10,245 nt of DNA from Bacteroidota bacterium. GTDB lineage: Bacteria > Bacteroidota > Bacteroidia > Bacteroidales > Marinifilaceae. Below, one piece after another: positions 73 through 4,308 of this stretch. The first letter of the stretch is position 1, and each line of letters starts with the position of its first letter. The notes under the pieces are model-generated. The model searched no databases. It was not told the origin of the DNA and saw only the letters and a list, made by a program, of their open reading frames with translations. The stretch lies in NCBI GenBank assembly GCA_023400335.1, contig JAEXFF010000415.1, positions 1-10,245 on the forward strand. The letters run 5' to 3'. A program made the position numbers and the translations under genes.

Positions 73-212
73 TGCCTATTTATGAGATGATTAAGTGTAA
101 AAGTGAATCAAAATTCATCGAATTGCATTTTTGCACTTAAAATTTTAGCACGATAGCGTATTTTACAAAGAAAGAAATATTTTATTCAGCAACACAATTA
201 GATTATTATTTA

Positions 213-1039: not shown

Positions 1040-1360
1040 CTATACTACAAGACAATTTCTTGAAAACGACAACGGGCAGGTGTTTAGTCGGAAGACAAGG
1101 GCGACAACCACCTCCATATTATACACATCCGCACCGTTTCCGTTTTCCAGACGAACGTATTTGCTGACTTCGTAATTGTGCAGGATGTTTTCTTTGAAGA
1201 TGGCTTTAATGCTGCCATGTACCGCTCCGGTAGTCGTGCCGAACAGTTCGACCAATTCCGCTTCACTCATCCATATGTCGGCGACCGCTCCGTTCTTATC
1301 GCTCGGCATTTTCAATTTGCCGTACTCGTCTATCGTGATGATGTTTCTTTCTTCTTTCAT
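1040..1360 (-). CDS. RhuM-like DNA-binding domain protein, possibly truncated
   Basis: This is a 106-residue protein. Residues 28-90 (I-W-M-S-E-A-E-L-V-E-L-F-G ... I-K-A-I-F-K-E ... Y-N-M-E-V-V-V-A-L-V-F-R-L-N) follow the order of the N-terminal domain of the virulence RhuM family: an 'IWLTQ..LAELF' helix-turn-helix-like part, an 'IF+E' helix, and a '+YYNLD.I...GYRVN' end. Small proteins of this kind occur near integrases on Bacteroidales mobile elements. After 'FRLN' the sequence diverges and stops within about 14 residues, so the C-terminus may be lost. The start at 1360 is the second of two nearby ATGs; the first (10 nt upstream) is in another frame. It begins 24 nt after the integrase stop, so it was probably cotranscribed with the integrase. 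The biochemical function is unknown. Confidence 0.55.
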   Translation of the reverse strand: MKEERNIITIDEYGKLKMPSDKNGAVADIWMSEAELVELFGTTTGAVHGSIKAIFKENILHNYEVSKYVRLENGNGADVYNMEVVVALVFRLNTCPLSFSRNCLVV

Positions 1361-1473
1361 CGCTTTTCATTTTAGGGGATTGGATTATATGGCCTGACAA
1401 ATGAAGTTCTCCATCCGCTCGATACGCTGCAAGAGTTTCTCCATGTCGCGGCTCACTTTCTCCGCTGTAATCT

Positions 1474-1534
1474 GTAGGCTCGGCAGATAACGCCTTGCCG
1501 CCTTGCGACGGTAGGTTTTTATCAGCCTGCCCCC
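1474..1534 (-). ncRNA. Group II intron domain VI with branch-point A at 1480
   Basis: Directly after domain V, GGCAG (1531-1527) pairs with CTGCC (1486-1482), enclosing a long apical region. After the 3' arm come G, A (1480), then GCCTAC to the splice site. The A at -7 is at the spacing expected for the lariat branch point. The basal helix is imperfect, so the exact fold is uncertain. Confidence 0.7.
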
Positions 1535-1568
1535 GAACCGTACTTATACGTTTCCATGTATACGGCTC
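1535..1568 (-). ncRNA. Group II intron domain V (catalytic hairpin)
   Basis: The minus strand has the canonical 34-nt shape: a 9-bp lower stem starting GAGCCG and ending CGGTTC, a 2-nt bulge (AA) on the 3' side, a 5-pair upper stem with one C-A mismatch, and a GAAA tetraloop. The catalytic triad AGC occupies positions 2-4. This is the most conserved part of group II introns and it sits 61 nt before the 3' splice site. Confidence 0.9.
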
Positions 1569-1598
1569 TCCATCTATAACATCATTTTTTTGATCACA

Positions 1599-1863
1599 GC
1601 TTTGAATGTTGGCATTGCACTCCATGCATACGACTAAAGTCTTTCTGTGCATTCGGAGCATCTTATCCTCCCATTCATATTTACCTTTTAACCCTTTTGC
1701 CATCAGAGCCCGGTGTCATATTGCCGGGTTTCGCATAAATGCGTTGATAAGCCACGTAAAACATTTGCTCATTGAATAGAATTCGGTAGAGCCTTTCATA
1801 TTTGTAATCAGACTCTTTGCTGTGTTCAGCTAAAATGTTTAATACTTGCTCTGGATTTCTCAT
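1599..1863 (-). pseudogene. ltrA: Group II intron reverse transcriptase/maturase, internally deleted remnant
   Basis: Residues 1-57 from the ATG at 1863 (M-R-N-P-E-Q-V-L-N ... R-I-Y-A-K-P-G-N-M-T-P-G-S-D-G-K) are the typical N-terminus of a group II intron-encoded protein. Immediately after, around 1692-1700, the sequence jumps to the C-terminal part in another frame: K-G-L-K-G-K-Y-E-W ... R-K-T-L-V-V-C-M-E-C. This matches the end of the HNH/zinc region of these proteins. The reverse-transcriptase fingers and palm with the YADD motif, the maturase domain and most of the endonuclease domain are absent, an estimated loss of roughly 500 codons relative to family length. The short junction resembles a deletion at A-rich microhomology (GGCAAAA/GGTTAAAA). 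The usual C-x-x-C-H-x-x-I-H ending is degenerate here (C-M-E-C-N-A-N-I-Q). It cannot encode a working protein. Confidence 0.88.
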
Positions 1864-2075
1864 ACGTCTCTCACGTTTCCCCTTGTTTGTATTAAAGTTA
1901 TAGACTACTTCCCTTCGCCATGTACAAGGCTTTCCCTTGCTCGGACTACTATGGAAGTTCCGTTACCATATCGGATATTCAAAAGCTAACTTTATAGCTG
2001 ATTGTTTTTCAGCGTTCCGACTTAGGCAATCCCCAGTTAGTTTGCTTAATAACCAGTAGCGCGACATACTGTCGG

Positions 2076-2081
2076 ATGCGA
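2076..2081 (-). other. Candidate EBS1 of the group II intron
   Basis: TCGCAT on the minus strand is fully complementary to the last six bases of the 5' exon (ATGCGA, 2443-2438, IBS1). It lies within the ribozyme domain I region, about 360 nt from the intron start, and supports the insertion point independently of the reading frame. Confidence 0.65.
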
Positions 2082-2768
2082 CTTTCGTTCTTATACGCTT
2101 ATTGCGGCTGTGTCATAGTCGGTTCTTTATGCCTTACTCTAACGCGCAAAATAGGTAAAGTACTATGAAACAACGTATATATAATAGTCTTCCGTTGTTG
2201 CAAGATGTGGTACCACCGAACTATCGTTCAACCAATACAGGCTTCCTCCTTATGTATGTCTTTTCGTCTTGCCCCTCAGTCGCTACTTGACTATTAGTAG
2301 ACTTGGAGCTTTAATCAGTATGCTACACTCCCATTAGGTTTCCCCTTTGGATAAACTGATTGACAATAGGATTATATCGAACCCAATCCTAACTTCTTGC
2401 TATATAAGTATTTATTAAGCAGCCAATCTGGGCGCACTCGCATAGATTGGCGTGGTGCGGATGCTGCGGTGTCCCAACATCTTCGAGAGCGTTTCGATAA
2501 GTACGTCGTTCGACAAGCAGACTGTCGTGGCGTAAGTATGCCGGCTCATGTGCCATGTTACGTTTTTCTCGATACCGCATTTCTTCGCTATTACTTTGAT
2601 ACCGTTTTTACAATTATCGTAACACGGAACAGACAGCAGTTTTCCATTCTCGGCCACGCCCTCGTACTTCTCGATGATATGTTTGGCTACATCCAGCAGT
2701 CGGATATTTGTTTTGACATCCGTTTTCTGAGGGTTGGTATTCAACCACAAATGCCCGTCAAAAGCGGT

Positions 2769-2771
2769 TTA
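2769..2771 (-). other. In-frame TAA nonsense codon in the integrase (codon 271)
   Basis: The reading frame is open for 270 codons before and 111 codons after this TAA. The sequence on both sides is good integrase with no shift of frame, so a single base substitution is the simplest cause. It lies between the S258 region and the H344-x-x-R347 motif, so the truncated product would lack all the catalytic residues recognised here. Confidence 0.9.
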
Positions 2772-3581
2772 CAGGTTCGCTCTGGTCAGGTTCGCCATAT
2801 CCGTCCAGCTCAACCCCGTAAAAGTGCAGAAGATAAACAGGTCGCGGATCAACGTGTAACTCGGCTTCTTGAACGTCCTGTCGATCAGGAGCCTGATTTC
2901 GTCTTTAGCCAGAAACCCTCGTTTCGTCTCCTCTTTCGTGATGCTGTACGCGAAAAACGGATCGCGCTGCAACAAGCCGTTATTGATGGCCATATAGATA
3001 ATTTTCCGGAACGGCATCATATACGACCAGACCGTATTGTTACAGTGGTTCTTTTCCACTTTGAGGAACAGCTCGAAATCGGTGATGAAAGCCGGAGTAA
3101 GCTCTTTCAGGGCAATGTCGCTGACCTTGTACCGCTTTTCAATAAACTCCGCGAGGTGCTTGTAAACAATGTAGTATTTCCAATAGCTGCGCAGGCTTTT
3201 AAGTTTACCTACCTGCTTTTCGTAGTCCTCATTGTGCTGGCGGAATACGGCAAGCAGCGTTTCGTGGTTCATACCCAATCCTAAATAGGCACTGCGGACT
3301 TTCTCGGCGGTGACATAGTTGTCGCGGTTGCTGATCTGCTGATAGGCTCGATTGATTCCCACACGAATCTTATCCAACATACGGTTCGCCTCCTGTGCAA
3401 CGGTACTCCGACCGGACACGCGGCCTAACTCTACGTTCCACGATTTTTCCTCCACGTCTAATTTGCCACTGAATTGGGCAATTTTGCCGTTTACGGTAAT
3501 ATGGCACATGATCGGAATAAGCCCGTTCTTTTTCGGGGCATTGCGTTTCAGATAGAATAATACTTTGAAAGTCGATCTCAT

Positions 3582-3624
3582 AACTCTACAATTTTAAGTG
3601 TTTAAAAATACTTGTTGTAGAGTT
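3582..3624. repeat. 10-bp inverted repeat directly upstream of the integrase start
   Basis: AACTCTACAA (3582-3591) and TTGTAGAGTT (3615-3624) are perfect inverted copies separated by 23 nt. The first arm touches the integrase start codon. The spacer holds TATTTTTA on the minus strand, a near match to the -7 consensus. The position suits an autoregulatory operator, integrase binding sites or part of the attachment region; no second att copy can be seen in the window. Confidence 0.5.
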
Positions 3625-3760: not shown

Positions 3761-4039
3761 ACTGTCTTTCGCCTCCCTCTGCCCGAATATCGGAGATTCG
3801 GCTATATTTGCGGCCGGAACAAGACGAATAGAGCTTGTATTTCAGCGCTTTGAAATTCTGCTGAAACCGCCTTTGCCATTCGGAACAGAGTAATGGGATA
3901 GTAACGTAACTCCGGTTTCAATTGGCTTTTCGAGGGTTTTACTTGGCATCGCTCCGGCGGCTCATTTTCCGCTAAATTCCTTGTTTACAACCTTCTTGCT
4001 CCAATCCGCTCCCTTTCTCGTTTTTTATCCTTATCTTTA
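3761..4039 (+). repeat. Diverged tandem repeat, copy A (gene-free region)
   Basis: This unit is repeated at 4055-4308 with many substitutions and small indels. Shared blocks include ACTGT..TTCGCC (3761 and 4055), GAATAGAGCTTGTA (3826 and 4117), CCGGTTTC, and a 40-bp block at 3961-4000 against 4231-4270 with 33 identical bases. Copy A ends in TATCTTTA where copy B has the promoter box TATCTTTG. No gene is seen in it, so it is most likely a duplicated upstream region with a decayed promoter. Confidence 0.6.
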
Positions 4040-4054
4040 CCTCAAACGGAAATG

Positions 4055-4308
4055 ACTGTTTTCGCCGCTTTATACCAATACCGGAAATTCGGATCGGTTT
4101 GTAGCCTGAACAAAATGAATAGAGCTTGTAATTCCGCATTCTGAAAACTTTCCCTGTCGTTTAGAGTAACGGAATATAAACTAACGCCGGTTTCGGTTGG
4201 TTTTCCAGCAGCTTCGTTTCGCTTTTGCATCTCATTTTTCTCTGAACTCCTTGTTTGCAACTTTCTTGCGCTTATCTGCACACATTTTTATTTTTATCTT
4301 TATCTTTG
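4055..4308 (+). repeat. Diverged tandem repeat, copy B, ending in the lipoprotein promoter
   Basis: This is the second copy of the unit at 3761-4039, offset by about 270-294 bp. It runs directly up to the lipoprotein gene and its last eight bases are the -7 box. No convincing gene lies inside it. Confidence 0.6.
4301..4308 (+). promoter_or_regulatory. -7 box of the LruC-domain lipoprotein gene
   Basis: TATCTTTG fits TAnnTTTG exactly. A transcript starting near 4315 would leave a leader of about 20 nt before the ATG at 4335, which argues against the upstream ATG at 4311. The -33 region has no good TTTG at the usual spacing. Confidence 0.55.

What the first reader, a model, noticed from the sequence alone, without database searches (positions are those of the whole stretch)
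1474..2437. Group II intron inserted one codon past the catalytic tyrosine of an integrase; splicing restores the gene exactly
Seen directly: GTGCG 5' end, CCTAC 3' end, A at -7, 34-nt domain V, and EBS1/IBS1 6/6. Joining base 2438 to 1473 gives I-Y-A-K-I-T-A-E-K-V-S-R-D-M-E, a normal integrase end. An intron in the active-site end of its carrier's own mobility gene would make element integration depend on splicing.
Basis: partly seen in the sequence, partly recalled or inferred. Interest (0 to 1): 0.75.

Follow-up and report, generated by a model that had tools for sequence, protein, structure and literature searches.

The report
Decayed intron inside a dead integrase
A self-splicing RNA element has inserted just after the active-site codon of a gut bacterium's DNA-integration gene; this copy looks dead, but related elements have hit the same spot in other, quite different integration genes, as a known relative does with DNA-transfer genes.

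Summary
Confirmed: a group II intron lies at 1474-2437 (-) in a tyrosine-integrase gene, one nucleotide past the TAT-GCG (Tyr-Ala) codons. Intact relatives read through the site, and exon 2 is their normal C-terminus.

Not confirmed: (1) Splicing does not restore this gene; an in-frame TAA (2769-2771) lies upstream of the intron. (2) The intron is not autonomous; about 1.5 kb of its LtrA-type maturase gene is missing. (3) The 6/6 EBS1 (probably TCGCAT) is a conserved block shared by introns at unrelated sites; a covariation scan places EBS1 at intron nt 291-296, pairing 5 of 6.

New: the same site is occupied in other integrases: 15 of 240 retrieved proteins and six DNA loci in three Bacteroidaceae genomes (four genes, two gene fragments). 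Without the fragments, 15 representative sequences form 10 clusters at 70% identity; a tree needs 12 state changes (9 forced) and rejects a single occupied clade. One occupied and one empty integrase agree over 170 residues. This mirrors Ll.LtrB, which repeatedly enters the catalytic motif of relaxase genes.

Whether splicing gates integration anywhere is untested.

The parts
2772..3581 (-). Integrase exon 1, first part: arm-binding and SAM-like domains, open until the nonsense codon
   Evidence: PF17293 and PF13102; relatives L001-L006, L008 and L116 align colinearly
2769..2771 (-). In-frame TAA inside integrase exon 1
   Evidence: ORF list; intact relatives align across this position
2438..2768 (-). 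Integrase exon 1, second part: catalytic domain to Tyr-Ala plus one base; the Q of TTQIY is P here
   Evidence: PF00589; the other occupied integrases have TQIY
1474..2437 (-). Group II intron, 964 nt, ORF internally deleted
   Evidence: Rfam; 85% identical over nt 1-738 and 73% over 747-964 to the full-length 2491-nt intron L129
2142..2147 (-). Probable EBS1 (GCGCGT, intron nt 291-296), pairs 5 of 6 with ATGCGA
   Evidence: covariation scan over 12 introns
2076..2081 (-). TCGCAT, part of a conserved block that can be mistaken for EBS1
1701..1863 (-). Remnant of the start of the intron-encoded reverse transcriptase
   Evidence: same start as the L129 602-aa maturase
1617..1697 (-). Remnant of the HNH endonuclease end of the intron-encoded protein, in another frame
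   Evidence: PF21368, E 3.5e-8
1535..1568 (-). Domain V, 34 nt, with a C-A mismatch in the distal helix
   Evidence: Rfam alignment, fold
1474..1532 (-). Domain VI with A at -7 and the CCTAC 3' end
1385..1473 (-). Integrase exon 2 (29 residues with the split codon) and stop
1040..1360 (-). Truncated gene that follows the integrase in relatives (RhuM-like)
   Evidence: 62-67% to L002, L116 and L001 proteins over about 100 residues, ending early here; RhuM name from the record of L118
573..719 (-). C-terminal fragment of another element gene
   Evidence: 77% over 52 residues to a 150-aa L001 protein

Best explanation
This is a decayed, non-autonomous copy of an LtrA-type group II intron that retrohomed into a conserved target just 3' of the catalytic tyrosine codon of an integrative element's integrase. 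Retrohoming means the excised intron RNA, with its reverse transcriptase, base-pairs to the target DNA and inserts. The target lies in the codons for Q-I-Y-A, which most integrases of this family share, so one intron lineage can enter many different integrases. Repeated occupation of the site is shown by comparison. That it happens by ordinary retrohoming is inferred from a full-length relative's intact reverse transcriptase and the EBS1/IBS1 covariation. In this window the integrase has an upstream nonsense codon, the maturase gene is mostly deleted and the rest of the element is eroded. Splicing, if any, would need a maturase supplied in trans and would not yield an active integrase.
For: Rfam hit and ends. 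Empty sites: 34 of 49 related loci gave a tail by a motif scan, each uninterrupted past the tyrosine, including 7 of the 8 closest. Occupied sites elsewhere: 13 proteins with Y-A-S-A-P tails plus 2 with Y-A-G-A-P, of 240 retrieved, and six DNA loci in G543, G596 and G435. L129 has a full 2491-nt intron with a 602-aa maturase matching LtrA over 591 residues (455 bits); its exon 2 peptide equals the tail of empty protein P0084, 24 of 24. The G435 intron ends (120 and 125 nt) are 99-100% identical to L129, while the flanking peptides agree at 29 of 37 (exon 1) and 5 of 23 (exon 2) residues. P0121 (occupied) and P0162 (empty) agree at 170 of 170 residues. Tree of 137 rows without the two fragments: 12 changes, 9 forced, single occupied clade rejected; with them 14 changes, 9 forced.
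Against: The host genome is not held, so presence of a trans maturase is unknown. Occupied proteins come without DNA, so their intron is inferred from the tail. The trees have long branches and many open forks, and occupied rows cluster somewhat more than chance (8 of 500 shuffles as low; 19 of 500). EBS1 pairing at integrase sites is modest (5 of 6 and 4 of 6), and EBS2 pairing was not convincing. Occupied sites are rare: 0 of 393, 0 of 98 and 0 of 5 genomes in other samples.
Confidence: 0.85

Rival explanations
1. One reading: a working intron whose splicing restores a working integrase, so that this element's integration is gated by splicing.
For: Boundaries are exact and exon 2 is intact; the part before the ORF, and domains V and VI, are present.
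Against: Nonsense codon in exon 1; no maturase in the intron; C-A mismatch in domain V and weaker fold than L129 (-39 against -53.5 kcal/mol); downstream element genes eroded.
Confidence: 0.05
2. One ancient insertion inherited vertically, with many losses, instead of repeated homing.
For: Occupied rows cluster somewhat more than shuffled labels; precise loss of introns could mimic gains.
Against: Identical or near-identical occupied and empty integrases: P0121/P0162 170 of 170, P0126/L006 about 99% over 170. Near-identical intron ends in G543 and G435 sit in different integrase sequences. Three integrase genes and one fragment are occupied in one genome. Single clade rejected.
Confidence: 0.07
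3. The unspliced gene is the working form: translation ends seven residues after Tyr-Ala in an intron-coded tail (SAPRMVA), giving an integrase with all catalytic residues but no C-terminal segment.
For: The tail is short, in frame and nearly constant in occupied integrases; P0121-P0127 have complete upstream domains.
Against: The tail is just the conserved intron start read through, so its constancy needs no selection; the C-terminal segment is conserved in intact close relatives. Recalled knowledge, from no call: the segment after the tyrosine matters for assembly in tyrosine recombinases.
Confidence: 0.1

Closest known systems
Ll.LtrB / Ef.PcfG group II introns in relaxase genes (PMC5072309 passages; PMC6003770 abstract and section 15)
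   Same: LtrA-type maturase; host gene is the mobility gene of a conjugative element; the same conserved catalytic motif is invaded in several host genes; near-identical introns in diverged exons
   Different: Host gene here is a tyrosine integrase and the site adjoins the catalytic tyrosine; the window copy has lost its maturase; hosts are Bacteroidales
RmInt1 in the ISRm2011-2 transposase (PMC4238363 passages)
   Same: Intron in the transposition gene of a mobile element, with splicing proposed to limit its spread
   Different: RmInt1 is grouped there with class D introns and has a different host gene; that paper already says such introns interrupt transposases and integrases
ORF-less bacterial group II introns (PMC4424553 passages)
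   Same: Ribozyme kept, protein gene lost; such introns are said to lie nearly always in genomes with a related maturase
   Different: Presence of a related maturase cannot be checked here because the genome is not held

Membership tests
Group II intron | Domain V-VI matching the group II model | tested here: met
   RF00029 52.5 bits against a gathering score of 40
Group II intron | GUGYG 5' end and AY 3' end at an exact exon junction | tested here: met
Group II intron | EBS1-IBS1 pairing | tested here: inconclusive
   covarying loop found; window pairs 5 of 6, L129 4 of 6
Group II intron | Splicing in vivo or in vitro | not testable with these tools
   needs RNA
LtrA-type mobile group II intron | Intact intron-encoded RT-maturase-endonuclease | tested here: not met
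   only RT start and HNH end remain in the window; met by the relative L129
LtrA-type mobile group II intron | Homology of full-length relatives to LtrA-type introns | tested here: met
   L129 maturase to LtrA 455 bits over 591 residues; 85% DNA identity of window to L129 over nt 1-738. The IIA/ML class label itself is recalled, not tested
Ll.LtrB-like retrohoming to a conserved mobility-gene motif | Same site occupied in several diverged host genes | tested here: met
Ll.LtrB-like retrohoming to a conserved mobility-gene motif | Mobility shown by experiment | not testable with these tools
   needs a homing assay
Functional spliced integrase | Open reading frame after exon joining | tested here: not met
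   TAA at 2769-2771 lies in exon 1; exons were not joined

The most novel reading that the evidence does not exclude
A lineage of LtrA-type group II introns has specialised on tyrosine integrases of Bacteroidales mobile elements. Its EBS1 core (GCGT) pairs with the invariant A-Y-G-C of the Tyr-Ala codons, with G opposite the synonymous base, so it tolerates codon change and can enter almost any such integrase. In carriers with open frames, element integration then depends on, or is throttled by, splicing.
Probability: 0.35. Interest if true: 0.7.

Novelty: new variant of a known kind. Interest (0 to 1): 0.5.

Why it matters
It is known that such introns home to a conserved catalytic motif of relaxases, the transfer enzyme of conjugative elements. 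Here the same type of intron repeatedly occupies the other key enzyme of integrative elements, next to its catalytic tyrosine. Occupied and empty alleles with identical integrase sequence (170 residues compared) exist, so the effect of an intron on element integration can be tested directly. The window copy shows a likely end of the story, with both intron and integrase decayed.

Tried and rejected
Domain I-IV Rfam models: none matched the window or four relatives, so their absence says nothing. The 3-mismatch junction pattern was noise: 208 of 393 genomes, and the backwards control also matched in many genomes. A junction pattern in viral contigs gave 4 contigs, none with an integrase frame. 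Six plasmid and phage records were fetched because the tblastn match ran to or near the tail (of 63 and 34 records with a match); all six read on past the site, one only to its contig end, as do two IMG/VR loci (L109, L111). One of the 7 pattern matches (G505, L135) is not in an integrase. EBS2 in the window gave no convincing pairing. Recombinant origin: the 3' part is less like L129 (73%) than the 5' part (85%), but no donor was found. Broken genes among occupied loci: an excess that depends on how two short fragments and L129 are scored (p between 0.003 and 0.34), so it is not claimed. A first count of 12 clusters and 38% identity between L129 and L134 included non-homologous residues of the fragments L131 and L134; one search replaces it.

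Full report
What is in the window. The minus strand from 3581 carries a tyrosine integrase of the Bacteroidales type (arm-binding, SAM-like and catalytic domains), interrupted at 2437/1474 by 964 nt that end in a group II domain V-VI (Rfam RF00029, 52.5 bits, 1570-1474). Domains V-VI fold as expected (z -4.1). The other genes are an LruC-domain protein, a zinc ribbon protein, an aldo/keto reductase, an EmrB-like (DHA2) transporter just under the family cut-off (221 against 230 bits) and a methylated-DNA repair protein. Among the 120 best transporter relatives listed, the first with an organism name is from Coprobacter tertius (78%); an unnamed one is 99% identical. The host is therefore probably an uncultured Coprobacter-like member of the Bacteroidales. 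No genome is held for it.

The boundaries are right. Of 49 loci related to the catalytic piece, 34 gave a tail by a motif scan, each uninterrupted past the tyrosine. Of the other 15, six were looked at by eye: one of the eight closest, L007, has a frameshift exactly at the site. The other seven of the eight closest have C-terminal tails 62-86% identical to exon 2. By tblastn, L001's 410 residues fall on the window as 1-381 (90%) and 382-410 (86%), with the intron between. The 5' and 3' ends match full-length relatives in other genes.

The gene is not restored. An in-frame TAA at 2769-2771 leaves only 110 open codons before the intron. The Q of the T-T-Q-I-Y-A motif is P here, unlike the 16 other occupied sequences. 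The gene after the integrase is truncated, and only a fragment of a further element gene was recognised beyond it. Intact copies of the gene exist elsewhere.

The intron is not autonomous. Its ORF keeps the start of a reverse transcriptase and, in another frame, the end of an HNH domain (PF21368). Against the full-length L129 intron (2491 nt) the alignment jumps from nt 738 to 747 while the relative jumps from 733 to 2274. The stretch before the ORF aligns throughout, and domains V and VI remain. Domain V has a C-A mismatch, and domains V-VI are less stable than in L129 (-39 against -53.5 kcal/mol).

EBS1. The exon ends in ATGCGA. It belongs to a block present, with small changes, in all 13 aligned introns, including those in topB-like, ardC-like and transfer genes with unrelated exons. 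A scan of 302 alignment windows over 12 distinct introns, asking where intron and own exon match better than intron and others' exons, puts IBS1's partner in a different loop (0 of 2000 permutations reach its score). The TCGCAT windows rank between 69 and 299. In the covarying loop the window has GCGCGT (5 of 6 pairs) and L129 has GTGCGT (4 of 6). The core GCGT faces A-Y-G-C, with G opposite the synonymous base of the Tyr codon; this is a suggestion from two sequences.

The same site is occupied elsewhere. A search with the catalytic piece listed 120 of 299 hits; five end in Y-A-S-A-P tails, which is what the intron's first bases encode. A second search aimed at that tail listed 120 of 393 hits; ten are integrases of 370-394 aa with such tails, eight Y-A-S-A-P and two Y-A-G-A-P. 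At DNA level, a junction pattern matched 4 of 206 Bacteroidaceae genomes. Six of the seven matches lie in integrase frames at the same nucleotide: one in G543, four in G596 and one in G435. Four of the six are integrase genes (L129, L130, L132, L133) and two are short C-terminal fragments (L131, L134). The G596 contigs end about 30 nt into the intron, as expected for a repeat. Other samples gave 0 of 393, 0 of 5 and 0 of 98, so occupation is rare.

L129 (G543) shows the complete form: exon 1 (itself frameshifted near residue 84), a 2491-nt intron with a 602-aa maturase (RVT_1, maturase and HNH domains; LtrA is the closest solved structure by sequence, 455 bits over 591 residues), then an exon 2 whose peptide is identical to the tail of the empty integrase P0084, 24 of 24. 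G435 carries intron ends of 120 and 125 nt that are 99-100% identical to it, in an integrase fragment that agrees at 29 of 37 residues before the intron and 5 of 23 after it.

Repeated entry. For comparison I used 10 of the 15 occupied proteins (the near-copies P0122-P0125 and P0127 were dropped), the six loci and the window: 17 sequences. Without the two fragments, whose upstream residues are not homologous, 15 sequences form 10 clusters at 70% identity. On a 137-row tree of integrase pieces cut after Tyr-Ala, the occupied state needs 12 changes, 9 of them forced by well-supported branches, and one occupied clade is rejected (p 6.7e-65). With the fragments the figures are 139 rows, 14 changes, 9 forced, p 5.1e-7. 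Long branches and many open forks (58 and 56) limit both trees, and occupied rows cluster more than shuffled labels (8 and 19 of 500 shuffles as low). The strongest single fact is P0121 against P0162: 170 of 170 residues identical, one occupied and one empty.

Does occupation harm the integrase? Of 7 occupied DNA loci, 3 have a full open exon 1 (L130, L132, L133), two are broken (the window, L129) and two are fragments. Of 47 scorable empty loci, 44 are open upstream; two more were contig-edge cases and left out, and L007, frameshifted at the site, counts as open. Fisher p is 0.003, but 0.02 if L129, whose last 313 codons are open, is scored by the control's own looser rule, and 0.07 or 0.34 without the fragments. 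This is not evidence either way.

Literature. Ll.LtrB and Ef.PcfG invade the same conserved catalytic motif of several relaxase genes and share 99.7% identity in diverged exons (PMC5072309, passages). Ll.LtrB lowers relaxase mRNA and conjugation (PMC6003770, abstract and section 15). RmInt1 splicing is proposed to limit its host insertion sequence, and that paper notes other introns in transposases and integrases (PMC4238363, passages). Bacterial ORF-less introns are rare and nearly always have a related maturase in the genome (PMC4424553, passages). PMC6907783 was seen in passages. Eight searches of the open library listed, by title and start of abstract, nothing on introns at the catalytic tyrosine of integrases; two of these lists were capped (20 of 48, 10 of 11), and subscription papers are mostly not in that library.

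Verdict. The wider pattern, a conserved integrase target for LtrA-type introns, is well supported by comparison and is a new variant of the relaxase case. Splicing, homing and any gating of integration remain to be tested.

Noticed in passing
L131 (G596 C29) and L134 (G435 C36): The intron sits in a C-terminal integrase fragment of about 40 residues on the strand opposite to, and beside, a full-length integrase; an inverted partial integrase copy.
   Followed up: partly
L077 (G008 C181, 22506 bases, apparently the same contig as intact integrase L008, by equal length): A 75% identical sister intron lies in a topoisomerase III-like gene right after the REGELIFR motif, so related introns also use other conserved motifs of such elements (gene name is my reading of the peptide).
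   Followed up: partly
L050, L151, L152; L052; L078, L079: Related introns in an ArdC-like gene, beside an annotated traI gene and in a traN-like gene; ArdC and TraN are my reading of the flanking peptides.
   Followed up: partly
L007 near 5310: An otherwise open Bacteroides fragilis integrase has a frameshift exactly at the intron site, perhaps a scar or an error.
   Followed up: no
window 134-148 and 3586-3600: A 15-bp inverted repeat (93%) brackets the integrase remnant.
   Followed up: no
window 3786-4025 and 4077-4295: Two neighbouring stretches upstream of the LruC-domain gene hold repeated blocks (71-77% alike).
   Followed up: no
G543 C1:896294-898761, C1:1470023, C2:725629: The G543 genome holds three further introns of this family at other sites (65-79% identity to L129), two of them in ArdC-like genes.
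   Followed up: partly
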